Below, piece after piece: positions 22,819 through 49,702 of a stretch of DNA of 64,000 bases (positions are counted from its first letter, which is position 1; the number at the start of each line of letters is the position of its first letter). A model generated the notes under the pieces. That model was not told the DNA's origin. It ran no database searches and saw nothing but the letters and a program-made list of their open reading frames with translations. Position numbers and translations under genes: made by a program. The DNA comes from Sisyra terminalis (lineage: Eukaryota > Arthropoda > Insecta > Neuroptera > Sisyridae): assembly GCA_958496175.1 (NCBI GenBank), contig OY292274.1, positions 26,823,482 to 26,887,481 of the forward strand. The letters run 5' to 3'.

Positions 22819-25800
22819 TTAAGGATGAAATTGGTGTCTTGGAAAAACAGAAATATGGGAAACTTTGGGTAATTTGTCATTAATTGGCTTGAATGTTTTT
22901 CCAATCGTAACAACTTTTGGTGACTCTGGCCGGGGCGGTTCTTTTTTGTTAGGCGCTTTTAAATCTTGAACTTGATTTTTCTCCTTTTGTTTATAATAAA
23001 ATATTTCTCCCGCTAAAGTAATCATTGCTAATGCCAAACCGAAAAGTGTAGCAATGAAAACTCCACCTAAACTTCGCAAAGTAATTCCTTCACTTTCTTC
23101 GGTATTAGCACATTCGCCACGTGCAGAAAAATTCCAATATTTTGCGTTCAAATTTTCAAAATAACGATCTCTTTGTAAATCTAAAACACTGTTAGAATAA
23201 TTGATTGAAAATGGAGTCTGTGCAAAATTTTCATATTTTTTTTTACATTTTACTAATTTCCTCTTGTAAATGACTGCCCTGTTGAACAGCGACTGCATAA
23301 GGTTGTTCTGCAAACGTTTCACCTACTATCGAAAAGTTGCAATTACGACTTACTTCATAACGAATTTCAGATGAATCATGAATAAATGCGAAATCTGCGT
23401 CTGCATGCTCTAAAACCTAAAATTTTTAAAAAATGTTTGTAATTATTATTATCTTCGTATGGGCGTATTTAGGTATGTTTAAGGAAGGCAGATTTGTTCA
23501 TTATTAGTTAAAATAAAGTTCTCGTGGAAAAAAGATTAGATAAAAACAGGATGTTAAAATGCATATAAATAAAGAAATCTGAATGTTGTAAAAAAAGCTT
23601 TAACTTTAAAATAAAGTATCCGTTATACTTATGCTATATTTATCCATTTATAGCGTGCTTTAAGCTTATATATGAGTTTTGCAACAATGGATGAATTTCG
23701 TAGTGCGATATGTACTGAATAAATTAATGGTTTTTCCTTGTCTGCTCCTCTTGACAAAATTTCTGTCCACTCCCTTGTTTTCTTACCTTTTGAAATCCTA
23801 CAGATGCATTAGGCACTGGTTCCGTTTCTTCAATGGCTAAAAGTATATGTCCGTATTGTTCTTTTATTGGGTAATCCCAAATACGGTACTTAGTTTGATC
23901 ACTTGACGCATTTAAAGTTAACTCTTTCCACATACTAAAATTTTTTTAACAATAAGAACAAACATCATTGTAGAAATATTTGCTTTACAAACTTGTATAA
24001 TGTATCTTCTGCATTTTTCATGTTAAGAAAATATTGATGCGCCATGGAATCTGCGACAACAGTGTAATTGATTCTTGATTGACGAGCAAGTTGTTCTAAA
24101 GATTGAACTGGTGTCTAAAAATTATTAATATATGCGTTTTAATCAATCTTTAAGTCTTTCTAAAAACAATTACGACCCCTTTTCAATTCTTTTACTTCGA
24201 AGTTTAAACGAATCCATTATAAAGATATTTATATTTTTGCTATTGAAAGTTTCATTGCATTGAAAATTCTTAGCAATAAATATTAAAGGAAAATCTTATA
24301 ACTTTCAAATATTTCGGTGTCATTACATAAAATCTAAAAGTTCCGTGAGTTTCTGTGGTGCAAAATATTGTCCACTATATTATCACTTTTAGTAATAAGT
24401 TCAATCTTACTCGTTATAAATCAGTTTAACTTTGTTTAAACAAGGTGAGAGTTTTTTAATTACTTACTTGCATTCTTTCTACTGTTAAAAATGCAGCTAA
24501 ATTAGCTGTAAAAGTAGCTAACATTAATACAACAAATAACCAATACGCGGCGACAATTGTTCGACCGGAAAGAGCTTTGGGAGCTTCTCCACCTCCTTGA
24601 GGTGTGAAAGATGTCAATGCAAACCAAAAGCTTTCTTTTAGTGTAAAATCTCTAAAACATATAGAGAAGAATATATATATAATGGTTTAATCATTACAGT
24701 AAAAGTTTTTAAACCTGCAAGGGTATGGATAAAGTTTCTTGTTATTTTTTGCAGAATAGGGTGAATATTTGTCCAAAATCCAAATCATTATAGCAGTAAC
24801 AGTAAGAGCTCCTAAAATACTCAGCCATACTTCCATTTTTAAAACAGTCATGAATTTAAATAGAGATGTTGATCGAACTGGTTTTCTGATTACTGAAAAA
24901 GGCATATATTTTTTTAAAAGAAAAATAATAATATGTGAAATGAAAAAAACCTATTAATATTCCAGTTTGTTCAAAATATGGAGCAACAAAATCGATAACT
25001 TCTTCTCGATCTGCTGTCATTGTTAAAGCAGCTACAACCAAATCCGTTTTCTGAAAAAAATGGGGAGTTATATTTTTTATATAAGTCCCTAAATGTTTTT
25101 ATAATTACCCCTTTCATAAGATCTCCTACAAGTCCATTCCAAGTTCCATTGTTTAATTTTTTTCCAAATTCTCCACTCGTTGGAAACACTAATTCGTAAT
25201 CAAAATTTAACTTTTCCGAAAGAGCTTGTATAAGATCGATACAGTATCCAGTCCAAATTACTGAACCGTCACTATTAAACATAACTTCTCCTGTATCTGG
25301 ATCTCTCATCTTCATCGTCCACGGAACAGCCTACAAATATTGTGTTTTTAAAAAGAAGTAAATCATTTCAGTAAAAGTTAATTACTTCGACGGTTCCAAC
25401 TCGAAAAAATAAACGTGTTTGAATAATTTGTTTATTTGGTTCAACTTGAAGGCCTTTTTCTATAGACCAGGTGGCAAGTTTACCAAGCTGATCATTCATA
25501 TCGTATGTGACAATTTCCATTTGGAATTTAAAAATAAATAGTTTTTTAATCGAATTAAATTTGAATAAATCAGAAACTTTCAAATCGTCAATTATTTTAT
25601 CATTAAAAGACTTGGAAATAGATTCATCAAAAACAGATTGCATGTTTGAGCAATTTATAATCTTTGTAGACATATCCATTTCGGCAGCCACCAAGCTTAA
25701 CATAACTCTCATTACATAGTCCAAAAAAGTTTTGAACAATTCTTTTTGAACATTAAAATCATCGGGACAAGAACAACCACTTGCTTGTAATATTTTGCAA

Positions 25801-28800
25801 CATATACTAGTTGAAGGATAAATATATGTCATGTTTTCAGTAAACGTTTTCCTCAGTAAGCTTTGTTTAAAATCTGTACTCACAAAATTCCATCGATCTT
25901 GCCTATAGACTAGTCCATGTTCTTTCGCCTGAAACCATATTGTTACAAATAGGGTTACTTGTAAATTGTACAAATTTTATTTTAAAAACAATTACGTATT
26001 CATATAAATTCTTTAAAGCGTCAGTAGGAGCTATTATAGCCCAATAAGATGGGGGAGGATTCATATTCTTTAGACCTGCTGTAGATTTAGCATCTAAACC
26101 GTCAACAACCATAATTCTCAAATTAGAATAGTCGATAAAGTAAAATAAAACTTGATCAACGCCTGAAAATAATAAAATTCAATTAGTATGTAATAGAGAA
26201 AGAATTTATCGGGAAAAAATCACTAAAAATTTAAAATATAATACACAGACACGAATACAGAGGGGGAGGTACGGTATGCAATTGTCTCTTCCTCCATGAC
26301 CCAGAATCAAAGCACTTCAAAGAAAAAAAACTAAATCAAAAGTAAATAGTAGATTATTTAACATATATTTTATGCAAGTTCAATTTAATGAATGGATACA
26401 ATGTTCAATTTGGGTATATGAGGGCAAATACTATTATTGTCATTAATATTAAGTAAAATTAGTTTATTGTGCATTATGAGATATGGTTTTTAAAATCAAT
26501 CTGTGCGATTTAAGATACCAGTCGTTCAAACCTTACTTTTGTTTTCCTTTTGAAAAAGTTTGTAAAACTATAAAAACAGCTTTAAAAATATATGTTGTAT
26601 AAAATATATTTGATTCTTAGACAGGCTTACCGAAATTTTAAACTATGTATAATTTTTTAAGTGATACGATTTTGCCTTTTTTCTCCAGAGATAGTTGAAA
26701 AATGTATTTTAATAGAAATTGCCAATAGTTTTTTATATTTTCTATTTCAAATAAAAAATACAAAACAATTTTTCATTTATATTTAAAATACTAAATGCAA
26801 AATACGTACTTTCAAAATACTTTCTAAATCTTTATCTTATTAGGTTTTTATTTAAATAAAGGATTAATTATTGTTATTATTATTGTTAATCTTTCTTCCA
26901 GCATTATTTTGTATATCTTTAAAACAATACTTTAATATCATTTAGGCGGGAAAACCACAGATGTAACTATCCATACTATACTAGCTGTGTATATTCTTTC
27001 TTACACGTTCGTTACACGTGGCGTACGCTTACGTGTTTACGTGGCGTAAACTATTTTCTTTTTTTGGTTTTAGTGGTCTAAAAACAGAACAGTTTACTTC
27101 ATTTAGGTCAGTATTGTCTTTGGTTCCATCGTGAATAAAAAAAAATAAAAGTCTATTCTTCGCCACATTAGTTTACAGTTGACAAATTTTATCAAGCCTA
27201 CTGGTGGCCGAGTGGTCAAGGTGAGCGCTCCAAAACTGGTAAATTTTGGGTTCGATCCTTGTAGCGAGCAAATTATCGATATTTCTCGATTACGGATTTG
27301 ATAAACCCTAGAGTCCCTAAAGACCTTACTAGTTGTAAAGCGATGGTACATAAGAATTAAAAAAAATATCAAAATGTAATTTGAATTTTGCAAATAAAAA
27401 ACATGGCCTAAAAGATATTTCAAATAAAATATAAATTACTTTTCTAAAAAAAGTATTTAAATACAAAATGGAAATAGGTATTTTGTATTTTGCATTTCAA
27501 GTATTACTACTTTGAAAATATCTTATCTCTGTCTTTCTCTTATATAAGCTGAATGTGAATACAATAATTTCAGGCAGAAAATAAGTGCATAGACTCATAA
27601 GCTAAGCTTTAATAATAAAACCATAAAAACCACAGAAAATAGTATTGTAATGAAATCAATACAGCGTAAACGTGTTAAAACATTTTCGTGTATTTATTTA
27701 GTCAAAACCAACAATGAAATAAAAGGTATAAACTAAATAATATCTTATCAAAAACAAAGAGATTATACTATTGAACTTAATGTTCACAAAAATGAAATGA
27801 AAAGAACAAATATTAAATGACACAAAATATAACGTAGTAGTATATAACGTAGTTATGCTAATTTGATGGACGTCAATTTCTTATACAGAAAAATTAGCCT
27901 ATCTACGGATGGCTAAAATATTAAGTTCAATTTCGAATTTAATACAAATTCAAATTTGAATCTCTTATCGAGCAAATTTTTAATATTTCTCAATTTACGG
28001 ATTTTTGTTAACCCTAGAGACTATGTTAGAGTCACCAAAGACCTTAATACCTTGCCATATTTCTTGTGATAGATTCATAATTTTAAAGAATGATGTAAGT
28101 TATTTCCTGTTTCTTCAAATATAAGATTCAGACTTTTATTAATTTTACGGCGATAAAACTCAACAGATTTTATTTCGAGAGACTCATTTTTTAGCGAGAA
28201 AACCCAAAGGCAATAAATTATTCACTATTCACCCAAATCTACTTTATCCTCCATCTCTCTCTAAAACCACAATAAAAAAACAATGAGTGTAATGAGTATA
28301 AACTTATAAACGACGCTTTTAAAGACAAAATTTAGAATTAACTAAAATAAGATTGTATTAATGTGAATCTAAATCCAAAAATTTGGTTAGGAAATTTAGT
28401 TTTTCCACTACGTCTTATTTTCAAGGTAAGATTTGTATTGAAATATTCCCGAATTTTAAGGTAGATCTTATTTTTGAGGTATGCCATATATTCGTGAAAA
28501 CACGGTGGTTCTTGTAGAGGTATTAAACTTTGTACTTGTTTATCGACGAAGCCGACGACCCTAAAGATTGTCACTTGACAAGTAATTCTTTTTGCCTTTG
28601 GATACACTTTTGGCTGGATTTCTATTGTTTTAATTATTCTAGAATTTTCATTTCCTTAAGTTCAATTAAAACATGTGCGCTAGTGTCATTTAATAACGAT
28701 TACTTAAGTAAAAACAATAGAAAAATATCAACGTAAGTATGAGTTCACAATTTAATATGCAAAATATTCGAGATATATAGTAAGTAAAAATCACGGTTTC

Positions 28801-29583
28801 TCTACCTGAAATGTTGCAAATTAAAATATTTCGAGTAGGTATAGGAGTACGTATTATTTTGTTGGTTCAAATTCCTTTTAAGCCATAGGTCCCTATTGCC
28901 TCGATATTGCCAAATGTTAATTTTTTTTAAACGGGATCAGTGTCTTACTGCCTAGTGTATTCTATGTTTTTGTTTTAGAAAAAAATTATAAAAATTTACA
29001 ATTATTTATAAATACTGTTTCTATAGTACCTTTTTCATCTTCTGCTATTATTGCACAATCCGTCGCATTACGTTGTTCAAGATATTTATCCAAAGCTTCG
29101 ACGAATGGAGCAGTTGATATATCTATTCGTAAATATGGAATTTTCTTACTTTTTGCCATGCTAAAGATTAGATCAAATCCACTAATTGATATATCCAAAA
29201 TAATACTGACACCCGCTGAGTTGATGGAACTGCAAACTATTTAAATATTGTATAAATTTATTATTCTTGCTCCTTATCATGAAAGTCAATTGTTATACAT
29301 TCGTCCAATATCTCATTTTCTTTTGTTCGATCAAGTACAATTACTGTTTTAGTGATTTTCATATTTTTATTGATTTCTTCAATATCATGAAAAATGTCGG
29401 TAGCCCACTCAGAAACCATTGTATAGTACTCTTCCAGGATGAAAACTAAAATATATTTTATTAAAAAATATTGCATTATTGTTGTACCTAGTACGGGTTA
29501 TGATTACCAATATTGTATTCCATTGTTGTCTGAGTTTTTCCACCAGTAGTTAAAATAATTAGAACAAAAATTTGTAGAAACAT
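22819..29583 (-). CDS. Ir93a: Ionotropic receptor of IR93a type, copy 1 (canonical-looking)
   Basis: Thirteen exons read on the minus strand: 29583-29508, 29445-29299, 29236-29030, 26162-25996, 25928-25386, 25330-25109, 25050-24951, 24892-24715, 24651-24468, 24114-23993, 23934-23787, 23416-23247 and 23188-22819. They join in phase to 877 aa. Residues 1-17 or so are a signal peptide, and the amino-terminal domain runs to about 380. S1 of the ligand-binding domain follows (GTVEAVPW, WTGYCIDLI, AALTMTADREEVIDF). The first membrane segment is near 500-525. The pore/second membrane region is LTSFTPQGGGEAP to TFTANLAAFLTVERM, about 555-607. S2 includes IWDYPIKEQYGHILLAI and FAEQPYAVAVQQGSH, and the last helix is GGVFIATLFGLALAMITL, about 796-818. 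These motifs match IR93a rather than IR25a or IR8a. IR93a is a dendritic co-receptor that in Drosophila works with IR25a in temperature and humidity sensing. Confidence 0.88.
27199..27368 (+). repeat. tRNA-derived SINE, copy S1
   Basis: Starts TACTGGTGGCCGAGTGGTC, containing an A-box (TGGCCGAGTGG, 27205-27215), with a B-box (GGTTCGATCC) at 27249-27258. A non-tRNA body follows (TCTCGATTACGGATTT, CCCTAGAG, CTAAAGACCTTA, GTAAAGCGATGGTA) and the tail is A-rich. Box sequences resemble leucine or serine tRNA. It lies in intron 3 of IR93a copy 1, opposite to gene direction. Confidence 0.8.
27962..28095 (+). repeat. SINE tail fragment, copy S4
   Basis: Shares the body of the S1 family (GAGCAAATTTTTAATATTTC, TTACGGATTTTT, ACCCTAGAG, ACCAAAGACCTTA) but lacks the tRNA-like head. 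A truncated copy in the same intron as S1. Confidence 0.6.
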
Positions 29584-31967: not shown

Positions 31968-32670
31968 ACTCAACTAGAATTTTGATCACAAAATTTTCTT
32001 CATTTCTTTTTCTTTTCATTCATTACTTTTAAAACTTTCTCTGTACATTGTTTAAAAAACATATTTATTTTAAATGTTTTCAAGGATATTAAACTTTTAT
32101 TTAATTTTTCTAAAGCTTTTAAACTTTACATCTGCGTAAGTATACGCACATACAGACTGGTTACATAGTTTAAATAAAAAGAAATCATTCAACGCTTTTT
32201 TCGAAAATTGGTTGTTCTTGTTTCAAAGAACAGATTTATCGTTTATTTTCTTCATTATTTTTTTGGTATCTCCTGGTAATATCTTTTAAAGTGACGGAGT
32301 CTTTGTGAAAATTGTATAGGTAAATTGAAATAATTATTAAAGAAAACAACTTATATCCAGTAAATTTATTGTTTTTATTGAAGTTACACAGAAATGAGGT
32401 TTTAATATTAGCAATCATAAAATTGTTAAACCTAAATCATCAAACTGCAAATGATGTACTGGTGATGGGAAACCCTTTGACATTTAGACGTATTGTGAAT
32501 CAATATTATTAGGTGATAATATTTAAAATCAATCATATAAGAAGTCATTAAATTTTGCATTTCAGTTAAGAGTGTTTTTCGAATTGTTATTACAATATAG
32601 TTAATTTTTTTTCCTGATGCAATAATTTTAATAAGTATATTGTAAATTGAACCCTGACAACTCACACTTA

Positions 32671-33208: not shown

Positions 33209-36200
33209 TTATTTCTCTGGTTCCTCTACTTGATCTTTCGTACTTTTTGTGTTCTCTTCATTTTCTATTTTCTTTTTTTCTTTGCGTCGTAAGTATAATA
33301 CTTCGACGCCCAAAGTACACATCGAAACAAAAAGCCCGAAAATTGTCGCAATAAAAACACCACCTAAACTTCTTAATGTTATGCCTTCGTTATCAGCAGA
33401 GTTTGGACACTCTCCTCGTACGGAATAGTTCCAGTATTTGTCCTTTAAATTCTCGAAATAACGATACTTTTGCCATTCTGAAAGACTATAAATTTATTTT
33501 TAAATTATGAATTGCAAATAAATTGATTTATTTACAGTTGACCAATTTCATGTTGAATAGGACTGCCTTGCTTAACTGCAATAGCGTATGGATGTTCACC
33601 AAATGGTTGTCCTATTGTCGTTAGGTTACAATTCTTACTTATTTCATATTCAATTTCTGCAGAATCATGAATTAGAATAAAATCACTATTTTGATGCTCT
33701 AAAACCTATTTTGTTTATAGTACAAAAACAACACGTAAAATATTTATCTATACCTCTTTAAATCCTGCTTTTGAACTGCCAATTGTACCATAATTGTAGA
33801 GACCATCTAGTAATGGATAATACAGTTCTGAAATTGGATAATCCCATACTTGGTATTGATCTTGATCATGATCAAGATTTAAAGCAAGATCTTTCCACAT
33901 GCTAAAATAGTATTAAATTACTGTAAATAAATTACTAAAATAATATAATTTATTCAGGTGTGTTTAACTTATAAAGATCTTCTTCAGCATTTTTCATATT
34001 TTCTATGAACCTATACGTTGATGAACGAGACACAACTGTATAGTTGATAAGTTTTTGCCTTACTAATTGCTCTAGAGATTGTACAGGCGTTTGCATTCTT
34101 TCAACAGTAAGAAAAGCAGCTAAATTAGCAGTAAAAGTGGCCAACATTAGTACCACAAACAACCAATAAGAAGCCACAATTGCACGTCCAGAAAGAGCCT
34201 TGGGAGTTTCCCCTCCACCCTGAGGGGTAAAGGAAGTTAGTGCAAACCAAAAGCTTTCCTTCAGTGTAAAATCCCTAAAAACATATTAAAGGTCACACAA
34301 AATTCAAGGTTAATTAATTATTAGACTGTTTACCTGAAAGGTTGCGTATAAAAACCTTTTCGATTTTTAGCAGAATACGGTGATAATTTTTCTAAAGCCC
34401 AAATTAAAATTGCTGTTACAGAAAGTGCGCCTAATATACTTAGCCATACTTCTAGTCTAAGTACAGTCATGAATTTAAAAATGGAAGTTGTTCTGTACGT
34501 TTTTCGTATAACTAAAACAAATAATTACCATCATCTTAAAGTTAAGATTTTCAAAAATTCCTTTCCAATCTTTGATTTTTTTTTAATTTAAGGTAGAAAA
34601 ATATAATTATCTTCGATAAAAATTTTATGAAAGTAATCTTTTACCTAAAGTATGTCCTGAGAAGCCAATATACGGTGATACAAAATCAACTACTTTTTCA
34701 CGTTCCTCAGAAAAAGAAAGTGCAGCAAAAGCCATATCAATTGTCTAAAAGCGTATTTTTTAAATTAAAGAATAATAAATGGATTACCACCAATGAAAAA
34801 ATACTTCGTCTACTAAATCCCCAATTAAACCATTCCATATTATTCCATTTGTATCAGTTTTCATACTTTCACCATAAGTTCCATACTTGGGAACGACAAT
34901 TTCATAATCAAAATCTAAAGCTTTAGAAATGTCTTTCAGAATTTCAATACAATATCCAGTCCATATTGGTTGTTGATCATCATCCAAAATAAGTTCATCC
35001 GTCTCCTCATCTCGTTTTCTATATGCCCAAGGAACGTACTATAATACTTACAATAAATTAAAAAATCAAAGGTTATTTTACTAGCACCATACTTCAATTG
35101 TTCCAACTTGATAAAATCGTCGAAGTTTCGGTATAACCGCGTGATTATCTACTTGAATGCCATATTTAGTACTCCAGTTTCCATAAACATAAGTTTTGCT
35201 TTTGGAAATATATTTAACAATATTTAAAATTAAATTCAGTTGTAATAACGATGTTTCTTTATCGTAGCTCAAAATATCAGATTTTGTAATATCTGATATG
35301 ACCGTAGACTCTATTGATTCTTTCCAAGATGCATTAAATTGTGATTCAAAATCATTACAGTTCGTTTGTATGAAATTAATTTCAAGTGGTGATTTTTGAA
35401 ATTGTTGGTATATTATTTTTACGATGTATTGCATTGAAACTGTAAGTATGTCATCAGGTAAGTCACTTTTTCCAGAACAGATACAGTCATCTTTATATCC
35501 TTTTATTACGCAACAAATTTTGGAGTGAAGATATAATAAACTCATATCTTCATTTAAATTAAAATCTTCAAATTGTGTGTCTGATTGAAAATCGGTTATC
35601 AGAAAATTCCATTCGTTAAAGTCGTATACAAATCCATTTAATTGAAACTTAAAGTTAAAATTAATCCCATTAATCAAAATGCCTGAATCGCAATTATGGG
35701 TTTGTTCCCCATTTATATGTTTACTATTTAATTTCGACTCGGAAAGTATTCGTCAACTCTACTACTACGTAATAAACCAATTGAAATTCAATAAAACTGT
35801 TCAAGATTATGTTCGTTTGATTCAGACATACCTATGATTATGTCTAGTGACAACTAATATACTACTTTTCTAATAGATATTAAATAGCAAACATATAAAT
35901 AAGAGACAAACCAAACTTAGTTTTATATTTAGCAGAAAGATTAAAAAAAAATATTTTTCAAGTTTTCACTTTGCTGTTGACATCGAATTCCACCCTGTTT
36001 CAAAAAGATATTTAAAAGCACTTGGAAATCTTTACATTTCAAATGCCTCTTATAACTTTAAATGGCTTCAATTTGAACATTAAAATGCGTTTATATGCCT
36101 TTTTGCTACCACTTCAAAATGACAAAAACGCAACCGTAATATGCATTGAACGCTAAGAAAACATGAGATAAGAGATATATATGCTATCTTTTTTATACTC

Positions 36201-39200
36201 TTATCAGGAGTTGTCGATTTGCTTCTGTGAAGGCAAAGCTGGGTTGAGTTATTAATAGCGGAAAAATAAAAAATCAAATAGCATCCTTATTATATATTGA
36301 AAATTCTCTCAGTGTACACGTTCTGTAGCAAAAAATATATAAAATTATGAATTTTTTATTGATTCCGATCCTGTAGTCTATCTTCAATTTTTTGTAGTTC
36401 CAAGAGTTTGAGGATCTTTATATTATTAAATAATTTTTACATTTTTTGCAACGTTTTGCAGTTTATTATTGCTTTTTCGAACGATTATAAATAACAGTAT
36501 AAATGTATAAAGCATAAGTTTTTAACCAAATGTCATTTATATTGATATCGAATTATTTATGTTATTTATAATCGCTTGAAAAAGCAGTAATAAACTGCGA
36601 AACATTGCAAAAAAAACAAAGTATAAATTATTTAAAAACAAAAAAAAAAACTTACAATCCTCGAAACAACAACAGATTGAGTATACAAAATATTTTCAAA
36701 TAATTTAGTTTCAAAGCAAAAATAAGTTATTTGAAGTAAATGAATGACGTTTACCAAAAACTAAATAAATTGATGCTACGAAATTGCAATCGCGACCTGG
36801 AAAGTTTTGAAAGGGACATAACAAAGTCTATTTGAAAAGGAGTCGTGAGATTAGCTGTGTTATTAATCGTGGCAAAATATAAATTTAATTGACATCTATT
36901 TTTAAATCTAAAAAAATAATGAATACACATTCTCAATTCTTTGCTATTTTTAATTTAATAGAATCTTAATTACGATATTATTTAAAAATACAGTTATGAA
37001 TTTGTATTTTGATGTTGAGATAAAATAAAAAATCACTTAAATATACGTTATGAAATAGAAAAGAATATGAGAAAATATATAGAAGTCAATGGTAAAAAAT
37101 ATGCGACTGATGCGTAGCTTTTCGTAGCATGTTTAATCACCTGCCATATTTATGTCTATGTCCTTTTTGTTGCATGTATGTATTATCAGCTTTCATATCA
37201 CTTATTTGTCTATCAATTTTATTTATCTATCAACCAAATTTAAATTTGAATTACTTTGTTTTAACTGGGCTATGTTGCATTGAATGACCCCCCATGCTAG
37301 ATAAGTAAATAGATGGTTTGAAACTAAATGTATTGCTTTACTATTGAATATTTCTTTTAACCCACGGTGGAAATAAAAATCTTAAGTATGGTCCTTCACA
37401 AAATCATATTAGACACCCCTGATTTAGAATGCTCATTACTTACTTTATACTTCACCTAAATCGGGTAAAATGAAGCCCTATTTGTCTAATTTTACGCATT
37501 TAAATAAAAATCAAACATATAAAAAAAGACAGATTGGCCATTGCTGTTGATATATAGAGCTGCGGAAAAAGTATGGTTAGCATAAAACATGTGCATTTTG
37601 TTCATACCTCGGCGATTTTTTAGCAGAAAAGTATAGCGAACATTTTACACAAAGAATTATAAAATTATTTATGCTTACCAATTTAAAGACACTCGATATA
37701 AGTTTAGAATTCATAATTATAGCGAAATTTTGAGTTGAAGGATTTATTTTCATCAAATATTTAAAAAATGTTGGCGTTAAATCAAAAGGTGTAATAAATA
37801 TCAAGTCCATAGTTGAAGACTTTGTAAAATATGATAAGGCCATGTTTATGTCTAAAAATGTAAATTTAAATTAATAAACTTATTACTCAAATTATATTTA
37901 CAAAATTAAAAAATACCAAGTTCTGTAGGTAAAACAAATAAAGCATTGTTTGAGTTCTTGTGTTCTAAATAGTTGTACATTGCTTGAATAAAAAGTAAGT
38001 TTGAAATGTCGATTCGAAAATACAAAATATTATATTTTTTTGCGATATCCTGCAATATTTCCCAACCTGTCATTGTCATATCCAAAAATACTGTAACTCC
38101 CATATTTTCCATTAAACTACAAACTGAAAAAAAAATTTTTTGGCGTCTTACATCCTTGTTAACTATAATTAGTTTGTTCGATTTTTTACAAGAGTATATT
38201 TTTATTAATGTCCATGTCTTTTATACGTAAACATAATTTTCTAACGCTCTGCCAATTTCGAAATTTTTGTCAAACATACCTTCAACGTCTATGGTTTCGA
38301 TATTTTTTTAAAAATAAGAAAATAATAAAGAAGTATGAGTACTTTCCAACGTTTAGTAAACTCCAAAGATATAGGTACATTTTGTAACAGAGGAATTATA
38401 ATATCCCTGTTGGGATGATTGCTATCTAATAGTTGAAATACTAACAATGATTACGTATTATACTCGTAACGATGAGGAAAAATTTAGGTACATAAAATAA
38501 TGTAAATCTAGTCGCCTACAGCCAAACTAACGAAATTATAAAAAAGTGCATCCATCTGGAAAAATACTAATGGAAACGCGATGATTTTTCCAATCGCCAC
38601 ATACGCTTGTAAGCTTGGTCCATAAAAAAAAAAACAACAAGCAAAAGATTGAAGCCTTTGAACTATAGGCATGAACATAAATGCAAACTAATACTAAGAT
38701 CCTTAGGGACAGAGAAAAGAACTAAGCATACATGATAAACTCATAAGTAGAATGAACAAGGCATACTTGCCTTGTACTGGTATTTCGATCATATGGCTTG
38801 GAAAACTGGAAAAAGGAACTACTTACTTATAGTTGAAGGGTAACTGGAAGGCAAATATAGCAGAGGAAAATTCTCCGCACGATGTTTGAGTGTATAAAAG
38901 AGCTAACTGGTCACTTATAGCCTGAAACCGCATATCTAGTACAGAACATTGAAACAGAAAATTATATCACCAAAATCTTTAGGGTGAGAAGAACAGATGA
39001 GAGAGAGTCACAAATATTGAGTGCTTCAAATTAACCTAGCAAAGCCACATTTCAAATAAAATCAAAGAAGCCATTCCTAGACTCATCCAACTATACCCAC
39101 TTATCAACAGAAGGTCTTGTCTAAGTATGGAATGTTCAATGATGAAAAACAAATCAGTTTATAGATCATTTCTCACATATTCGTGCGCAGTCTGGCTTCC

Positions 39201-42200
39201 ATCAAACAACCAAATTCATCCCGAAATGAACGTCCCATACATAAAAGACTTTCTAATCCAACTCACAAGGAATTTCCTTAACGACCTAGAAAATTGTCCT
39301 AGTGCAGTAGAACTAGGCTTGGGGAAAACTATAAATCAAAGAGGGCTTAAGCGGAAACACCCTCAAGAGCTTCAAGAAATAGCAGTTGCTTGACCACAAG
39401 GTCAAGAACAATCAGTAAATAAAAAAAAACAGAGGAATAAAGTTCGACTCCTCCAGCTACTTAAGCCCCGCTAAAGATCAATTACCTGCTATCACCATCA
39501 GGAAATAGCGACACATTGCTGAACTAGTACAAATTACATAAAAGTCCACAAAAAAAAATTCGACCTCAATGAATTATGAATGTATCAAACCGACTTGCGT
39601 AAAAATATTAGCTCATGTTTATAAGTCATCATAAATCTTATTATAAATCATGTACACTATCTTTGTTTGTTTCTTACCAATACTGGTGAATCTACGCAAA
39701 AATTTGGGGGTACTATAAATCATTTTTTCAAACATTTTATTTTTAAATTATTAAGCAAAAATACATAAAGGAATGGAAGAAAAGTGATGTTCTCCAAAAA
39801 ATAGAAGACTGCTTGTCCGTAGAATGAGGTGTAAAGGTAACTTTAAGGCTTCTCAAAGGAACCGGAGCTTTTAAAGACCTATAATCCAGGTGTGAATTGT
39901 GATGTATTCAAATTTCGAACAAGTACAAGAGTTTAAAATGTGATAGTCGCTAATGACTCTGGCCGTTGAAACGACTATAAATAACTGAGGGAAAACAAAT
40001 ATACCCTATACAATGAAAATAGATAGTACTTTGGAATTTAATTCGCTAGGTACTTTGCATATTTAAAATTCGCCAGAGTCACACAAGGGTACGAATCTAT
40101 AAGCTCAGTTCCTTTACAATGACATCTCGTTTAATATTGATAAATTAATAACAAATTTATAATTAGTACCTAATGGTTTTGAATAAAATTTCAAATTTAT
40201 GTACAATGATTATAAAAATTAAAATTGTATGTTCTACCATTTATGACGTATTTTTAAATATACTGAAATAAATAAAAATCTCTAATTTCGATTTCTTATA
40301 TTAAAGGTTGATAATTTTGATAGCAATAATGAAAGAGAAAAAATATTTTTTTCCTAAATTATTTATTAATATTGCTTAAAAATTTGCAATTAGAAATGCT
40401 AAAAAAAATATAGAATATAGGTTAAAAAGCTAAGAAAAGAATATAAAATTTGGAGGCTTACAATAAGTATCGGATAACAGATTACAAGTTCAAATTTGGA
40501 AAATAAAATTCGTAAAAGCTGGCAAACTTTCAAATATTTGGGATCAACTATTCATCGGGGTGGTATTTGCTTAAGAGAAAAAAAATAAAAATGGCGCAGG
40601 AAAAGCAAGCTACAAAACAATCACAAAACATCACAAAAGTTAATATGAAATAAGACACTTATCAAAGAAAACAAAAATACGAAATCTTTTAAAGTTTAAC
40701 CCAAAATATAGCTTTGTACGGAGCAGGAGTATGGCAAATGACAACGACCATAGAAACAAATTAAGAACATAAAATTAGACTATTTTAAAAGATTTTTAAA
40801 AGTCACAAGAAATCATAAAATAAGAACAGAAGAAACATGGCGACGATTGGAGGTTAAATGGTCTATGACAAGGCCACTAGAAAAAGGGCATTACAATGGT
40901 CATATCCAAAAAATGCCAGATTACAGATGACCAAAAAGAGTATTAAATTGGAAACCCCAGGAAAGAGACAAAAAGGAAGACCAGTTCTACCAACGGAAAC
41001 TTACATCAGATAAACTATGGTAGAGAAAGATCTAAGCATTCTAAGACAGGGACATTGAAAAATCAAAGAATTCGTAATGGGAAAATGCCAAAGATGAGAA
41101 AGAAGAAATGGTATAAGTTAGGTGGATAACATAGATATAATAATTATAAGTAGAACTAAACAATTGTGAACCAATGTTTAGTTAACAAAGTATGTAGATA
41201 TAAAGTAAATGGAAAAAGTATTTAGAAATTAAAATTGGTCGATCAGACACAGGAAATATAATATGAGCATTGCAATTTGCATGGATAAAAACGTTATAAA
41301 CTGTGGCTCTTTTATGAAAACATTGCAAAGTATTATTTGACCTTCCTTATCTTTTCTATATTTTATATACTTTATTAAATTTATATACTTATATATAGAC
41401 TTTTATGTTTTGATCTTCAAATAATATATTTGTCTAGACTCTGGAGTAATGATCTTCAACCCTATGCCTGCGGATACCATGGCGCCTCCCGACCGTTTCA
41501 CGTGTACCCGCCGCTGTGCGACCACATTAAAAATATTTCTTTATTATAAATGTTTTGAAAAAAATTATATCGTTATAAATTTTCCCTTTGAAATAGCATC
41601 ATCTAGGTGTAGTTTGGTTTGTTTCCGTTTGTGTTAAAACGTTCTCCAGTGGTGCGTTCTTCCAATTCAGCTCAATTGGCAGAATTTTATGCTTTATATT
41701 TTTTTTGGAACTAAATATTTTTTATGTATTACCTACATGTATGTATTATTGGCTTTGGCCAAATGTAAAAATATCTTGAAAATTTTGGATAATTTTTCAC
41801 TTCAAAAAGGAAGTGTTATAAAAGCTATACAAAAGATATATAAACAAAAATGAATTCTTACTTTTACTGACGTAAACAAAATCGAACAGACTAAATAAAG
41901 TTAAAAATCATAGATGTTTATTACTTATCACACTCATATCTAGTACAATGGCTAAGAAATATAATTACAGAAGCTGAGATACTTTGGTAATTCAATTAAA
42001 CAATTTCCAAATTTGCAACGTTTCGTCAGCTAGTCGCTAACTTTTTCAGGAGAAATTTGAATGTTGATTGATTGAAGTTCAAATTTCCTGTGAAGAAGGT
42101 AACAACTAATCAACTAAACGTTGCAAATTTGAAAATTGTTTGAACTGCTAAATTGTTCCTCATAATTTTTTTGACCGATGTTAAATTTTTAAAATAAAAT

Positions 42201-42585
42201 TTCTTCATAATATTTTGCTCCCAAAAAGTTTTTAGTTTTTATTTTTTTGAAAGTTAAAAAAAGGGGAGCTTACAACCTAACTGATAAACGTTACAAAAAT
42301 TTACCTTTATTGTAAGAGTAAACTTCATTGTGATGATTTAGAAGGACTAGATCAGTTTCCGTTTCTAAATTTGCATACTTATTTTGAAGATTAAAAGCAA
42401 GTCTTTTTAATAGAAGAGAAAAATCTCTATGTTGCTCTTCACCAATCAAAACTAAAATATTTTATTTCCTTAATTTTAAAGCTCAAAAACAAGTATAAAT
42501 ACTTACTCATTTTCAAAACAAGTTTATTTTGAGCTTCTATTGAAGAAGTAGTTAAAATTATAAACAATAGTAATTTTGTTAACAT
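33209..42585 (-). CDS. Ir93a-like: Ionotropic receptor of IR93a type, copy 2
   Basis: Twelve exons on the minus strand: 42585-42507, 42451-42305, 38123-37917, 37851-37679, 35647-35093, 35038-34805, 34744-34645, 34511-34334, 34274-33969, 33901-33754, 33705-33536 and 33485-33209. They join in phase to 857 aa. A signal peptide (LLLFIILTTSSIEA) opens the protein. The amino-terminal domain to about 387 is poorly similar to copy 1. S1 carries IWTGYCIEIL and SFSEEREKVVDFVSP. The membrane core is almost as in copy 1: LTSFTPQGGGETPKALSGR, WLFVVLMLATFTANLAAF, LTVERMQTPVQSLEQL. S2 has WDYPISELY and FGEHPYAIAVKQGS, and the last helix is GGVFIATIFGLFVSMCTL. Most exon lengths equal those of copy 1. The pore/second-membrane exon is one 306-base exon where copy 1 has 184+122, so one intron is exactly missing. 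The acceptor of exon 5 (at 35648) is AT-rich and less sure. No disabling change is visible. Confidence 0.83.
35648..37678. other. Long intron of IR93a copy 2 with a hairpin
   Basis: A 2-kb intron that contains the strong palindrome at about 36405-36672 and no recognised coding region. Stretches at 36190-36290 and 36825-36925 share weak similarity with each other and may be older repeats. Confidence 0.5.
36405..36672. repeat. Hairpin-forming inverted repeat
   Basis: The arms, about 36420-36496 and 36557-36640, are inverse copies with few differences, both running through TTGCAACGTTTTGCAGTTTA-like and CGATTATAAATAA words. Weaker pairing (GAGTTTGAGGAT facing ATCCTCGAAAC) extends outwards. The loop is about 60 bases. 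It fits a foldback MITE inside an intron of IR93a copy 2. Confidence 0.7.
38690..38990 (+). mobile_element. Degenerate LINE 3' end (endonuclease-reverse transcriptase, RTE/L2-like C-terminus)
   Basis: Translations in broken frames give LEGKYSRGKF followed by IKELTGHL and later ETAYLVQNIETENYITKI. This is the order of the C-terminal block (EGKRSRGR, IKxLTG, aQdRexWR) of many insect endonuclease-reverse transcriptases. Several stops and frameshifts show it is dead. Confidence 0.55.
38991..39425 (+). mobile_element. Degenerate Jockey-type LINE 3' end
   Basis: In one frame from about 39050 it reads KEAIPRLIQLYPLINRRS, LS, then YRSFLTYSCAVW and VPYIKDFLIQLTRNFLNDLE. This matches the stretch after the reverse-transcriptase palm in Jockey-clade elements (LYPLxxRRSxLS, YkSxLtYgcpvW, and the ixeYIkxLaxkFf tail). 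An A-rich run follows at 39419. It is truncated at the 5' side, as is usual for LINEs. Confidence 0.65.
40460..41150 (+). mobile_element. Degenerate LINE 3' end (endonuclease-reverse transcriptase)
   Basis: Fragments FKYLGSTIHRGGIC near 40530, GHYNGHIQKMPD near 40890 and KRVLNWKPQ near 40940 appear in the order found at the C-terminus of insect endonuclease-reverse transcriptases (FKYLGSxI, GHxxRMpd, RPxRGRPr, W). Frameshifts and stops break it throughout. Confidence 0.65.
41985..42155. repeat. Near-perfect hairpin
   Basis: The left arm (41985-42061) and right arm (42077-42155) are inverse copies around a short loop, with shared words CAAATTTGCAACGTTT and TCAGGAGAAATTTGAA/TTCAAATTTCCTGTGA. 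It sits 150 bases from exon 2 of IR93a copy 2, within its intron. Confidence 0.7.
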
Positions 42586-43087
42586 TTTTGAAAAGCTCAA
42601 CGTTGACTATTGAGAACCTTTGATTTTCAAACTGTATAGGAATTCAAAACATTTGTGTAAAATTGTACTTTTAAACTATTATGGCTATATTAGTTTAAAA
42701 GCTTTTTACAATTATTTATGTAAGAGCTTTTGAAAATATAAAACATATTAAATTTTAAACATAAAATACATTTTATTTTCAAATGGATCTTGTCAAGTTC
42801 TTTTTTTGAAGGAATAAAGAGAGTTATTTTTCTAACTACTAATACATTTTCAAATTACATGTTTCAAGCATAATGTTGAATATTTTATGTGTAGGTAATG
42901 ATTATAAACATGAAAACCGTCCCTATTATTCTGTACTGATATCAGGGGGTATAAGATGCATATAATTAATTTAATGGGAATACATTTTTTTGAAAAAAGT
43001 TTTGCAATACAAAAAACATATTTATTTTTATTCATTTATAGCTATGTACATATAAAGTTTAAATGAATAATGTATATTTTTTATTGT

Positions 43088-43237
43088 TATTTACCATCGC
43101 TTTATAATTAATAAAATATTTAGCAACTCTAGGATTAATAAAATTCCATAAATCGAGAAAAATATATAAAATTCGCGGATTCGAATTCAACACGTACCAG
43201 TTTTGGAGCGATCATCTTGACCACTCGGCCACCAGTA
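43088..43237 (-). repeat. tRNA-derived SINE, copy S2
   Basis: On the minus strand it begins TACTGGTGGCCGAGTGGTC, has GCTCCAAAACTGGTA, a damaged B-box (AATTCGAATCC) and the family body to CCTAGAGTTGCTAAA and TAAAGCGATGGTAA. It is about the length of S1, so it is near full length. Confidence 0.8.
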
Positions 43238-44127
43238 CGCTTAATATATTGACCACTGAAATGAAGTTTTTATTAAAACAGAAAAATAAATACTTTAATA
43301 AATGTACCTATCCTAAGGGGCATTTCACGAGCAGTTTCACGTACCTGTGGAAAAAAGGAATTTCTGAAATTTGTTACATTTATTATACTTCCAGAGAACC
43401 TAAATGTATATTTACCTGATTATTTACGTAACATCACTTTATATCAATCAGATATTTATATCATAATGTTTAATTTTCTTCTAATAAACACCTAAAAATC
43501 CTGTTGAAATTTTAGAATTTAATTTATTTTTTTGGAGTTTTGACTTTTTTCATTCTTATTTCGCAACAATGACAAAAACATTGTGTTCGACTGTTCGATG
43601 GATGCCAACATATTTACAATACCAAATTTTATGATCGTTAAATTAAAAAAATAAGTCAACAGACTGTTCCTGACTTTTGCTTCCAAAAACAGGCTTTAGT
43701 GTTGAAATCTATTGTTTTATTGTACAGAACTCTCAAAATCGAAAAAAAATCGTTTCTCCATTTAGCGATACACTATGGCCACGGCCCTTCAATCTTTGTA
43801 CTAGATTTCGCTAACTTCAATCCGCTTCTACTCGTGCTATTGTTATAAACTTGTCAAAATCATAATTTCCATGCAATTATAGTTATTTTTTTAAGAAAAA
43901 CCGTTGAACAGCTTATACCGAAAGATTAATTATTCAAAGTATGATTTCTTGAGTGCAATGAACCATTCCTGTACCTAGTCGAATTTAATCGATCAAGAAA
44001 TAGAAAAAAATTCAGATAGTAAATTGCCTTTTAACATAGATCTTGTAAGTAAGAAATATTGATTTAAATGTACCATAAAATATGATTCCTAATATCGGCA
44101 TTTTAAAAAAGTCTAAAAATTCGATCA

Positions 44128-44236
44128 TTGTATCGAGAAAATTTTCAATATTTTTCGAATACGGATTTTTATTAGCCCTAAAGTTGCTAAAAACCTTGGT
44201 TATTATAAAGCGATCGTAAAAAGCAATTAAAAAAAA
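44128..44236 (+). repeat. SINE tail fragment, copy S5
   Basis: Contains the family body only: ATCGAGAAAATTTTCAATAT, ATACGGATTTTTATTA, GCCCTAAAGTTGCTAAA, ACCTTGGTTATTATAAAGCG, then an A-rich tail. The tRNA-like head is missing. Confidence 0.6.
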
Positions 44237-44898: not shown

Positions 44899-47800
44899 TT
44901 ATTTTTTCTTACGTAGTTCCAATACTAAGGAAATAATTGCTAACAAATAAGTGACACTAGCGACAATAAAAATTCCTCCTGAAATAGTAATAGTTAATGT
45001 TTTGATAGTATAATTCGAAAAAAATCGTCCAAAAATAATAAATTTACCAAAATTTTTAAAACCCACACTGTATTCGTCTGAGGAGAAATCTTTGTTGCAA
45101 TTATTATTTTTTCCTGAATTCCAGTATTTTTTTCTTAAGGAAGAAAAAAATTTTTGCTCGTGCAATATAGAAATGCTAAAATAAATATGAATTATATTTT
45201 CAACATTAATTTGTTGAATTGAAAAATACGTTTTTGTTAAATTTTTGGTGAGTTGACTTTTCTTTTGTACGGCTAACGCGATGGGAGCAACAGCAAACAT
45301 AGATCCTGAAGTTATTAAGTCACAATGCAGTTTCGAAGCATACATTACTTCATCGGAATCATGAATTAATATATATTGACCTTCCGTATCATCTAAAAGC
45401 TAGTTGAAAGTAATAATAATAAAAAAGTTATTAATTATATTATTAAATACTCTCTGAGCAGCTTCTGCGAAAGTTTTAGATAAATTATAACGTTTCATTT
45501 CATTTACCATCGGAAGAAAACGATCGAATGTTGGATAACGCCAAATACGATATTTTTTACGATCATTCATTTCTTTTAAAGTTTTATTTCTCCAAAGGCT
45601 ATGAATATATAAATAAAAATATAAAAATAAAAAGACAAACATTAAGAAACTATCATTGTTACATATAACATTTTACTTGAAAATAGTTTTTTCTGCTTCG
45701 ACGCATTTTTTGAAATATTTCAATGTATATGAATCATTAACTCCGATAAGTTGTACTTCTTCTTGTATCAAAACATCATCGATTGTATTTAGTTTCACCT
45801 ACATTAATATAAGTAAACTTCTATTAAAACTGGAAAAGACAATCAAATGAAAACATTACAAATATACCGTTTTTTTTTCAGTTGTTAAATATGAGGCAAA
45901 ATTAGCTGTAAATATTGTCAAAACCAAAACGGAAAATATCCAAAATATAATGACAAGTAATCGAGCTGATAATGATTGTGGTGGTTCACCACCTCCTTGG
46001 GGCGTAAGTGATGTCGCCACAAACCAAAAGCTTTCCCGCAAAGAAAAATGTCTAAAATAATTTTATGTAAAAATGTCTTATAATGAATGCAATAATCGGT
46101 TTTCCATGCCTCATTGATGTATTAGAGCCATAACTGTTTCTTGCAGAATACGGAGAGTATTTATCCAAAATCCAAAGTGCAATTGATGTAGAAATAAGGC
46201 CAAATAAAATAGCAAACCACACAATTGGTTTTAATACAATCAAAAATTCAAAAAGTGAATGCTCCTTAGCAATTACTCTCATCACTGCAAATAATTAAAA
46301 AAAAAATATAACTTTTTGATTTTCTCTTTTGTCTGTAAAGTTTCATCATGGACCGAGTTATTCGCGGAGTAAATTAAAAATAAAATATAAAATGCAACAT
46401 TGCCAAATATTGATGGAACTTGAGCCATTTTTTAATTTCTGCTGATAATTTTAAATTGACTTATCATACTCAATAGAATTTTTGGCATTGGTATACTTTT
46501 GACCAGTCATACTTAACCTTAAGCCCGTGGGCTGCATGGTTAACAAGTCGGTTAACAAGTTGCAAATTTTACAGAAGAATTAGAATTATGGTTATAGTGT
46601 ATAAAGTGTCTAAATCTACAGAGACTCTTATTTTCAATTCTTAGTTTGCAGCCCCAAAATCATTTCTTATAAAGTACTTATACGCATAATGCAAATATAT
46701 TCAACATAATAAATTTAAGATATCCAAAATGTGGCAGGATAACTGTTCCCTCGTAAATATTTGGCGATGCCTATTTTATATATAATGTAAACAGCATGTT
46801 ATATTATTACTTACGCATTAAGGATCCAATTTGATGAAATGAAGGAGTTATAAAATCAACAACGCTTTTACGATGTCTTGTCATAACGAGGTCTGTTACG
46901 GCTATGTCTAGATACTAATATTTCAAAAAGAAATAATGAAAATATGAGATTATATGGTATGTTTTACCACTATTTATACTTTTTCCGACAAATTTCCTAT
47001 AAGTCCAGTCCATGAACCATTTACAGATTTACCATAATCAAATTTAGAAAAAGTAATAATTTTGTAATCAAAGTTCATCATTTCGGCTAATTTTTTAATA
47101 AAGTCTAACGAAAATCCTCTTTTTTCTAGGACGTTGTCATTATTTTCGTTTTCAACTTCATAATACCATGGTTCCTTCTGAAATCAAAGTACGAATATTA
47201 AATTATATGAACGCTTACTGTCAATGTATTTAATGGAAAATCTTACCATTATAACACCAATACGTAAAAATGGTTTTAATGTATAATCATCCTTAACATT
47301 TACTATTCCGAAACTATGCACCCATTGTTTTATTATTACTGGTTCTAGATTGTCGTTTATTTGAATAATGTCAAATTTTACCGAAACTTCCACCTCAAAT
47401 CTTTTAATATCATATGCTAAGAATTTATAATTTAAAAAATATTCATCCATAATTTTTGAAAATACGTATGCCAGTTTTCTATCAGAATCAGAACTCTTGC
47501 TATGATTACAAAAAATTTGCTTTGATTTTATTTCAGAGGAATGGATTGCTGAAAAGTGCAATAATATATCTGAGATTGTTGCAAAGAATGCCTGCATTGT
47601 TTGTTCACGAAAAAATTCATTTTCGTCGATACAATCACAATCAGTTTGCATGTATTTGATAAGACAACACATTGCTTTATTTGCTTGCAAAATAATCATT
47701 TTTGGTTTCAATATTTTTATATTATCGAGGCTACTGTAGTCCTCAAGAATTAAAATCCATTTTTCTGGTTTTATGTAACCTACTTGTGGCTGAATCTTAA

Positions 47801-49702
47801 AAAAATAAAATAAACAAATTTTAGTTTCCTAGGTATATAGTTTTTCATCTAAAAATACAGAACTCAAAATAATTTTTTTAGTAGATCATTTTACTTTGCA
47901 ATATTTTGTATAAATTATTTTTTATTTTTCAGACATATAACTTTTAAGATAGTTGATAGATAATCGGATAGTATAAACTGATTCTTGGTCATTTATCTAA
48001 ATTGGATCTACCAAAAACTGTTTTCTAAAAAGATTTTTTGCCAAATATGTTTTTATTAACTTTGGTAAACGTAACTCAGTTTAATATACATCTTTAATCC
48101 GCTTAGGTAGAGATAGCCGGGCTTTTTCCGTAATCCGTAACTTTGTACGTAAATCCATCTTGCTGTATAAGAATTACTTTTGTAATAGTTATTACCTTTT
48201 GAAATAAAGTTGTTACATTATTGGAATGAGCAAAAAGCGCATAATGTGATGGTTCTGGGAAAATTCGTGTCGAATTAAAATTTAATGCATTGATTATTCT
48301 AACTTCAGATTGCCCAAAAAAATATATATAAGATTGCTCTAGTTCTGAAATTGAAAAATTATTAAAAGTTTTCTTAAGTGTATTACAAGCTATGGCAATT
48401 AAAGTGAAAATACAAGGATTTTTCTAACTAATCAAAAACTGGAATTCATAACATACGCTTAATTAAAAGTCAAAGTATTCATATGTGATTAATGTTACTG
48501 AAAAGAAAATCTATTTAAGCACTAAATTTTAGGGATAAAAATCAAAACTGAATTGATACTAATTATTCGGCAGTTCTTCGAATAGTGATTCCCAAAGTTG
48601 ATTAGACCACAATTTTCCTCACAAAAAAACTTCCAAATTTGGGACTCTTCTCTTGGTTTTCATGACTTGACAAAAAAAGGACTAAACTATATGAATGAAG
48701 TAAAATTCAAACAAGAAAAAAACTTCACTTTAAATCGAAAATTTGATTTCACGAACAACTCAATATTTTTCGCGACCTATGCTTTAAGAAATACTGTTTT
48801 AGAGAAAATACTGTTTTTTATTTATAAATTTAAATAACTATTACTGTAATTTTGTAAGTTTGTGTTAGGTCAAGTGAGAAACATTAAGTGGAAGCTTTTC
48901 AAATTTGAACTTTGAACATTAAGCATTGACATTCACTGGTGATTGTTAGGCGATACTTACTAAATACATTTACAAATACATACCAAAAAGAAATACTCAT
49001 TTCTTACATACATGCTAGCGAAGAGCTTTTTTTTCATTAAATTTTATTAAAAAAATATTTACTTACCATTTTCTTCTTCAAAAAATAAAACCGCATCATT
49101 TCCGTTAACTGTTTCAAAATATCGTTTGAAAACTTTCAAAACTGGTACTAAAGAAATATCAAACCGAATATATGGAATCCCAAAAATGCTGCAAACATCT
49201 TTTGCAATTTGCATTCCATGCCAAGTTATATCAATTACAATACTTAAATGATTCGATGGTAACAAACTACAAACTTTTATAAACACGTGAATATTTGACG
49301 TAATTGATAAATTATACAAATCATTTCTTACAGTTTGTGGCCTTTATAGATGAATTATCAGAAATATAAATCGTATCGATATTTATTAACGGTTGAGTTT
49401 TATAAACCTTTTTATTAAGTGCGTTAACAATCCAGCTTAGCTCTTTTACACTTTCATGTGATTCTTTGAGAATAACTGAAAGTATAAAAGATTACGAGTA
49501 TTAGTTCAAAATATATGTAAATGTATAGTCAATATATTTTAAAAAAATAATTAAATGAATAAAATTATTATTTTATTTTAATATATTTAATAAAACAATT
49601 AGTTGGATTAGTAATTTTACCTAGAGTTATATTTACTTTAGAGTCAGTTTTGGGCACGATTATGATAAAAATGCTCAAAAGATAATATTTTGAAAACCAC
49701 AT
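44899..49702 (-). CDS. Ir93a-like: Divergent ionotropic receptor of the IR93a lineage, copy 3
   Basis: Thirteen exons on the minus strand: 49702-49621, 49475-49332, 49273-49067, 48344-48196, 47789-47247, 47177-46980, 46914-46815, 46284-46110, 46051-45868, 45798-45677, 45598-45451, 45399-45230 and 45175-44899. They join in phase to 832 aa. Exon order and most lengths equal copies 1 and 2 (207, 543, 100, 184, 122, 148, 170, 277), so it is a true paralogue. The pore loop is kept (VATSLTPQGGGEPPQSLSAR), but the next helix reads LVLTIFTANFASYLTTEKKT. The S1 region equivalent to AALTMTADREEVIDF is TDLVMTRHRKSVVDF. The S2 motif equivalent to FAEQPYAVAVQQGS is MFAVAPIALAVQKKS. The cysteine-rich part of the amino-terminal domain is altered (AMCCLIKY, CDCIDE). 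The intron 46109-46052 appears to be GC-AG. It could be a functional receptor with new specificity or a young pseudogene still open. Confidence 0.78.
46052..46109 (-). other. Apparent GC-AG intron in IR93a copy 3
   Basis: Between exons 8 and 9 of copy 3 no GT donor exists in the right place. Using GAG|GC as donor and TTTTAG as acceptor gives a 58-base intron, keeps the phase and rebuilds the same split arginine codon (AG|A) as in copies 1 and 2. Confidence 0.6.

What the first reader, a model, noticed from the sequence alone, without database searches (positions are those of the whole stretch)
22819..49702. Tandem triplication of the normally single-copy IR93a co-receptor gene
Three intact head-to-tail genes share exon order and mostly identical exon lengths, and all carry IR93a-type motifs (TPQGGGE pore loop, FTAN(L/F)A helix, VGTVE-PW-type S1 entry). 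IR93a is generally a conserved one-copy antennal receptor needed with IR25a for temperature and humidity sensing. A three-gene array with graded divergence suggests division of labour or a new role, and I know of no description of such an array.
Basis: partly seen in the sequence, partly recalled or inferred. Interest (0 to 1): 0.88.

Follow-up and report, generated by a model that had tools for sequence, protein, structure and literature searches.

The report
Tandem IR8a co-receptor trio, not IR93a
An insect, probably a lacewing relative, carries three neighbouring copies of the smell co-receptor gene IR8a (not of the temperature and humidity gene IR93a), of which one is conventional and two have changed strongly while staying intact.

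Summary
The window holds three intact, head-to-tail genes on the minus strand with shared intron positions and phases, at the stated coordinates. The identity given is wrong: they belong to the IR8a co-receptor clade. TPQGGGE occurs in 158 of 158 fetched IR8a-type and 0 of 120 fetched IR93a-type proteins. A tree puts all three with IR8a (support 99/96); grouping them with IR93a is rejected (AU p 0.004). The genome's own IR93a is a separate locus on another chromosome-scale contig.

Copy A is a conventional IR8a. Copy B (857 aa) is its sister with a far longer branch; it is the only one of 148 compared sequences without the N-glycosylation sequon in the co-receptor extra loop, and it lacks the IR8a C-terminal tail. 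Copy C (811 aa) is extremely divergent. Synonymous divergence is saturated, yet both frames are open, so both are probably functional.

Best reading: an old triplication of the normally single-copy acid-sensing co-receptor, A keeping the ancestral role, B and C specialised. Specialisation is inferred; expression is unknown. The genome is neuropterid, possibly Sisyra-like. New variant of a known kind.

The parts
22819..29583 (-). Copy A, canonical IR8a, 877 aa. Exons 29583-29508, 29445-29299, 29236-29030, 26162-25996, 25928-25386, 25330-25109, 25050-24951, 24892-24715, 24651-24468, 24114-23993, 23934-23787, 23416-23247, 23188-22819.
   Evidence: Spliced alignment to an IR8a profile, ends set by hand; 55% identity over 98% to Blattella IR8a; deviates at 4 of 219 near-invariant IR8a columns.
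33209..42585 (-). Copy B, divergent IR8a paralogue, 857 aa. Exons 42585-42507, 42451-42305, 38123-37917, 37851-37679, 35647-35093, 35038-34805, 34744-34645, 34511-34334, 34274-33969, 33901-33754, 33705-33536, 33485-33209.
   Evidence: Intact model; sister of A in a full-length tree without C, 99/96; deviates at 39 of 219 columns.
44899..49702 (-). Copy C, highly divergent IR8a paralogue, 811 aa. Exons 49702-49621, 49475-49332, 49273-49067, 48344-48196, 47795-47247, 47177-46980, 46914-46815, 46284-46110, 46051-45868, 45798-45677, 45598-45451, 45399-45230, 45175-45048, 44978-44899. Retaining the last intron also stays open (834 aa).
   Evidence: Intact model; with the IR8a clade 99/96; deviates at 102 of 219 columns, 3 of them gaps.
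23787..23934 (-). Copy A exon 11, within the co-receptor extra loop: sequon NAS at the usual place
   Evidence: sequon 6 residues after the reference Trp, as in 126 of 145 references.
33754..33901 (-). Copy B exon 10, same loop kept (LALNLDHDQ) but without any N-glycosylation sequon
   Evidence: the only one of 148 sequences (145 references + A, B, C) without it.
45451..45598 (-). Copy C exon 11, same loop, sequon NKT shifted four residues upstream
   Evidence: same shifted place as in 19 of 145 references; Aedes is one (alignment).
33969..34274 (-). Copy B exon 9: precise fusion of two exons (306 nt = 184 + 122 of copies A and C), an intron lost in B
46052..46109 (-). Copy C 58-nt intron with a GC donor (GC-AG)
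   Evidence: Chosen by the spliced alignment although GC donors were penalised (flanks). Read through, the upstream frame runs into a stop at the end of this intron (frame 46294-46055). That this intron is spliced is not shown.

Best explanation
This is an old tandem triplication of the IR8a gene, the co-receptor that in Drosophila assembles with acid-sensing tuning IRs and carries them to the sensory cilium. Shown: three intact IR8a-clade genes in one 27-kb array, with no further copy found in the assembly; A conventional; B and C strongly diverged but still encoding a hydrophobic start, amino-terminal domain (ATD), ligand-binding domain (LBD) and channel. Inferred: A keeps the general co-receptor role. 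B is a modified co-receptor, a natural counterpart of the Drosophila IR8a N669Q sequon mutant, that leaves the ER only with some tuning partners or when assembled with A. C is neofunctionalised, either as a narrowly used co-receptor or as a subunit that joins A-containing channels.
For: Identity: the listed hits of B (best 120 of 1699) and A (best 120 of 389) are IR8a-type; some carry the source label 'ionotropic receptor 25a', but those used in the tree (for example Diprion, Athalia, Anoplophora) group with the named IR8a of Aedes, Bombyx and Blattella. IR8a profile bits A 1307, B 949, C 544, own IR93a 75; IR93a profile bits own IR93a 1278, A 113, B 104, C 73. Tree support 99/96 and AU rejection of an IR93a placement. 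ATD cysteine pattern (CC, 4-12 residues, C.C) in A, B, C and 138 of 158 IR8a-type proteins, 0 of 120 IR93a-type. Confined to the array: among the 44 places matching A in the genome (52 of 57 candidates scored), every match that begins before residue 402 of A lies in the array. Function kept: dS saturated in all three pairs (1.4-1.6) with dN 0.50 (A-B), 0.75 (A-C), 0.79 (B-C), and open frames where simulated neutral drift of A at 0.3 substitutions per site gives a mean of 35 stops, at least 19 in 200 runs. In the A/B pore/M3 part dN is about 0.09 while synonymous sites are saturated, so selection and not gene conversion keeps it alike. B mechanism: sequon in 145 of 145 references, absent in B; in flies the N669Q mutant reaches cilia with IR75c and IR84a but not with IR64a or IR75a, and wild-type IR8a complements it (PMC6472016, 12 of 25 passages incl. 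much of the abstract).
Against: No expression data. C needs a GC-AG intron. C scores only slightly above the genome's own IR25a on the IR8a profile (544 against 507 bits, the latter for an LBD/TM part only). C's place is unstable: A+C neither supported nor rejected, p 0.20. On the LBD/TM alignment A, B and C are not recovered as one clade, though this is not rejected, p 0.30; the bootstrap of that tree had not settled. dN/dS uses saturated dS and is only an upper bound. The IR8a references are best hits of A and B, so divergent paralogues in other species could be hidden. B also lacks the tail, so the sequon need not be the change that matters. In Drosophila IR75c responses were reduced with N669Q, so 'tolerant' partners are not all fully so.
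Confidence: 0.6

Rival explanations
1. The array is a triplicated IR93a, needed for temperature and humidity sensing.
For: Family resemblance only; the copies are iGluR/IR channels.
Against: Motifs, profiles, tree and AU test; the true IR93a is elsewhere in the genome.
Confidence: 0.01
2. C, and perhaps B, have stopped being co-receptors and are now ligand-tuned subunits assembling with A or IR25a.
For: C deviates at 102 of 219 near-invariant IR8a columns, many in the membrane part, B at 39; tails lost; outside the pore/M3 part B has changed far more than within it.
Against: Both keep the long ATD, the co-receptor extra loop, the S1 Arg and S2 Asp.
Confidence: 0.27
3. B and C are decaying duplicates without function.
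For: Fast evolution, lost tails, GC donor in C.
Against: Complete open frames at saturated synonymous divergence; simulated drift gives dozens of stops.
Confidence: 0.08
4. C is older than the insect orders: an ancient second IR8a-like gene kept here and lost elsewhere.
For: In the LBD/TM tree C branches before all 26 sampled IR8a.
Against: Its branch is 3 to 10 changes per column, so long-branch attraction is expected; it sits in the array with the same intron phases; one clade with A and B is not rejected and is recovered by the quick full-length tree, SH-aLRT 96.7, with a warning that long branches meet.
Confidence: 0.12
5. Assembly artefact (uncollapsed haplotypes or misjoin).
For: None seen.
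Against: Copies differ at 57-74% of aligned residues with saturated dS, and lie inside a 71-Mb contig.
Confidence: 0.01

Closest known systems
Insect IR8a co-receptor (single gene)
   Same: ATD, LBD with co-receptor extra loop, TPQGGGE pore, FTANLAAFLTVER M3 (A, B); A has the IR8a C-terminal tail.
   Different: Three tandem genes instead of one; B lacks the loop's sequon and the tail; C deviates at 102 of 219 near-invariant columns and also lacks the tail.
IR8a N669Q (engineered Drosophila mutant, PMC6472016, passages)
   Same: Loop kept, sequon missing, as in B.
   Different: B is natural and differs at many other sites.
IR8a.1/IR8a.2 of Aphidius gifuensis (PMC5479799, passages)
   Same: More than one IR8a reported in one species.
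   Different: Two antennal transcripts with contig names of one cluster (CL75), 705 and 843 aa, possibly isoforms (my reading); no genomic array in the passages seen.
IR25a co-receptor
   Same: TPQGGGE pore and co-receptor role.
   Different: The locus read as the genome's own IR25a (by recalled motifs, not by a named hit) is on C3 and falls outside the clade of the copies.
IR93a
   Same: Same superfamily.
   Different: Different pore (QQGGM), M3 and no ATD cysteine pattern; separate locus on C4.

Membership tests
IR8a | Falls in the IR8a clade in a tree with other IRs/iGluRs | tested here: met
   copies + 26 IR8a rows, 99/96, IR25a outside. Only one IR25a row (LBD/TM part, named by motif) was used; bootstrap not settled.
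IR8a | Orthologue-level similarity (copy A) | tested here: met
   48-58% identity to the listed 120 (one more at 66% over 59% of A); 4 of 219 near-invariant columns changed.
IR8a | Co-receptor extra loop with N-glycosylation sequon | tested here: inconclusive
   A yes, C yes (shifted by four), B has the loop but no sequon.
IR8a | ATD with cysteine pattern CC..C.C | tested here: met
   A, B, C; 138 of 158 IR8a-type proteins; 0 of 120 IR93a-type.
IR8a | C-terminal tail ending in an SYISVFP-like motif | tested here: inconclusive
   A yes, B and C no; found in only 89 of 145 references with the pattern used.
IR8a | Co-receptor function with acid-sensing tuning IRs | not testable with these tools
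   Needs expression in neurons or oocytes.
IR93a | Falls in the IR93a clade | tested here: not met
   (AU p 0.004).
IR93a | IR93a pore and M3 motifs (QQGGM; [YC][CSN]GNL) | tested here: not met
   none of A, B, C; 89 and 116 of 120 IR93a-type proteins.
IR25a | Groups with IR25a rather than IR8a | tested here: not met
   with one IR25a row; the separate test of C with IR25a did not finish and was not rerun.

The most novel reading that the evidence does not exclude
The insect uses a combinatorial co-receptor code: instead of one IR8a for all acid-sensing channels it has a general one (A), one that naturally lacks the trafficking sugar and so sorts only with some tuning receptors or with A (B), and one turned into a new kind of ATD-bearing subunit (C), giving different neurons different IR8a cores.
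Probability: 0.25. Interest if true: 0.8.

Novelty: new variant of a known kind. Interest (0 to 1): 0.5.

Why it matters
[quoted passage not shown] Three old, intact and unequally evolving copies would show that a co-receptor, not only the tuning receptors, can diversify. Copy B is a natural test of a known question, whether the sugar on the co-receptor extra loop decides which IR complexes leave the ER.

Tried and rejected
IR93a identity: rejected. Recent gene conversion as the cause of the 94% identical A/B pore block (60 of 64 residues): rejected, since synonymous sites there are as saturated as elsewhere. Loss of the S2 threonine in A as a change of ligand binding: dropped, because only 64 of 145 references have Thr there. 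Shared repeats at 27.2, 43.1, 44.1 and 51.1 kb as the recombination substrate of the array: dropped, because they belong to a genome-wide family of about 190 bp (3581 first-look candidates, 40 scored). A fourth copy or relic in the window: none seen, all 63 tblastn hits of A, B, C overlap modelled exons. What the trnC order says within Neuroptera is mostly recalled. Structure prediction was not run.

Literature: an IR8a array was not seen in the listings of searches (40 of 57 papers listed; 5 of 5; 40 of 157; 25 of 1,174; 15 of 421; 25 of 27; 20 of 8,157), of which I saw titles and the start of abstracts; passages were read of PMC6472016, PMC6175461, PMC5479799, PMC3694914, PMC7570057 and PMC2924276. 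Only open-licence papers are held, so this does not show absence from print.
Full report
WHAT IS THERE. The results are A 877 aa, B 857 aa and C 811 aa, all without internal stops. Donors are GT and acceptors AG except one GC donor in C. The exon plan is the same in all three; B has lost one intron exactly (306 = 184 + 122), and C may have one extra intron in its last exon, whose retention is also open.

WHAT IT IS. Protein searches with a rough B (7992 candidates scored, best 120 of 1699 listed) and A (best 120 of 389 listed) returned IR8a-type insect proteins, under various source names; together 158 were kept. The genome was searched with the Pfam ion-channel family (60 places) and with A (44 places, 52 of 57 candidates scored). 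Matches to the amino-terminal part of A occur only in the array; matches elsewhere begin at residue 402 or later. Twenty loci, covering 31 of the 57 places outside the array, were fetched and read. By motifs that I recalled, they include IR25a (L002), kainate- and AMPA-type receptors, NMDA-type receptors, a likely IR76b (L016) and IR75-type tuning receptors (L011, L014, L015, L018, L019). Only L009 was checked by a search of its own: it is IR93a, 52% to Tribolium IR93a and 61% over 74% to Chrysoperla IR93a (7993 candidates scored, best 120 of 204 listed).

TEST OF IR93a VERSUS IR8a. On an IR8a profile A, B and C score 1307, 949 and 544 bits and own IR93a 75; on an IR93a profile own IR93a scores 1278 and A, B, C 113, 104 and 73. 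Own IR25a, of which only the LBD/TM part was modelled, scores 507 on the IR8a profile, close to C, so C's membership rests on the tree, its ATD, its exon plan and its place. TPQGGGE is in 158 of 158 IR8a-type and 0 of 120 IR93a-type proteins; own IR25a has it too. The LBD/TM tree (44 rows: 26 of the 158 IR8a-type and 7 of the 120 IR93a-type proteins, the three copies and eight own receptors) joins A, B, C and IR8a at 99/96, with IR93a apart at 100/100 (bootstrap not settled, long branches flagged). Forcing the copies together with IR93a is rejected, p 0.004.

HISTORY. Without C, the full-length tree makes A and B sisters (99/96) next to beetles (83/90), with B's branch 2.45 against 0.47 for A; this fits a duplication in the neuropterid line. 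C's branch is about 10 changes per column in the full-length trees, and its place is not fixed: with A alone, A+C is not found but not rejected (p 0.20); with A and B a quick tree makes the three one clade (SH-aLRT 96.7), but with a warning that long branches meet, and the careful tree did not finish. In the LBD/TM tree the three are not one clade, and A and B are not sisters; holding together all three (p 0.30), A+B (p 0.37) or B+C (p 0.30) is not rejected. Synonymous sites are saturated in all three pairs, so the copies are old.

ARE THE COPIES FUNCTIONAL? Simulated drift of A's coding sequence at 0.3 substitutions per site gave on average 35 stops, at least 19 in 200 runs; B and C have none at far larger divergence. 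A/B dN falls to about 0.09 in the pore/M3 part. All three keep the S1 arginine and the S2 aspartate. Expression is unknown.

WHAT CHANGED. Among 219 columns that are at least 97% invariant in 145 IR8a references (145 of 158, chosen by length 780-960), A deviates at 4, B at 39 and C at 102 (3 of these are gaps); the references deviate at a median of 0 and at most 9, gaps not counted. These references are best hits, which makes the contrast look somewhat sharper than it may be. The co-receptor extra loop is kept in all three. Its sequon is present in 145 of 145 references (126 at the usual place, 19 four residues upstream), in A at the usual place and in C at the shifted place, and is absent in B. 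The tail motif is present in A and absent in B and C, but my pattern also misses it in 56 of 145 references.

HOW IT PROBABLY WORKS. In Drosophila, loss of the loop's sequon keeps IR8a with IR64a or IR75a out of the cilia, apparently trapped in the ER, but allows transport with IR75c and IR84a (with reduced IR75c responses), and wild-type IR8a complements the mutant, because a complex holds at least two IR8a subunits (PMC6472016, 12 of 25 passages). By analogy B would be a co-receptor with restricted partners, or one that travels with A. C has changed so much in the membrane part that a new role is more likely than redundancy. These steps are inference.

KNOWN OR NEW. Croset et al. 2010 (PMC2924276, passages) report a single gene per species for most orthologous groups; the thrips genome paper says that like most other insects it has single orthologues of IR8a, 25a, 76b, 21a, 40a, 68a and 93a (PMC7570057, passage); the German cockroach paper gives single orthologues of Ir8a and 93a (PMC6175461, passages). 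Two IR8a transcripts are reported in Aphidius gifuensis (PMC5479799, passages), and a source name 'Ionotropic receptor 8a.1' exists in Athetis dissimilis. No IR8a array was seen in searches (capped listings). Hence a new variant of a known kind; interest 0.5, higher if B and C prove to work with different tuning receptors.

Noticed in passing
window 13829-15718, + strand: Gene with RasGEF_N and RasGEF domains beside the array (the piece 13829-14716 was scanned).
   Followed up: partly
window 18676-19463, + strand: Gene with a eukaryotic porin (Porin_3) domain (the piece 18897-19463 was scanned); looks like TOM40 (name recalled).
   Followed up: partly
window 27173-27368, 43069-43261, 44120-44236, 51077-51257: Dispersed repeat of about 190 bp, SINE-like, with many copies genome-wide (3581 first-look candidates, 40 scored).
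   Followed up: partly
window 30427-30972 and 31538-32151: Inverted repeat pair (67.6% over 624 columns) between genes A and B.
   Followed up: no
L012 4359-5468 (G000:C1, about 128 kb below the window start): Divergent IR in a 617-aa open frame without introns on the same contig; about twenty frames of 590 aa or more stand in the table.
   Followed up: no
L027 (G000:C10, first 9,900 of 16,212 bp): Unplaced contig with a tandem repeat: near-identical open frames recur about every 335 bp.
   Followed up: no
window 52416-53084, - strand: Lysine- and histidine-rich open frame of 223 aa.
   Followed up: no
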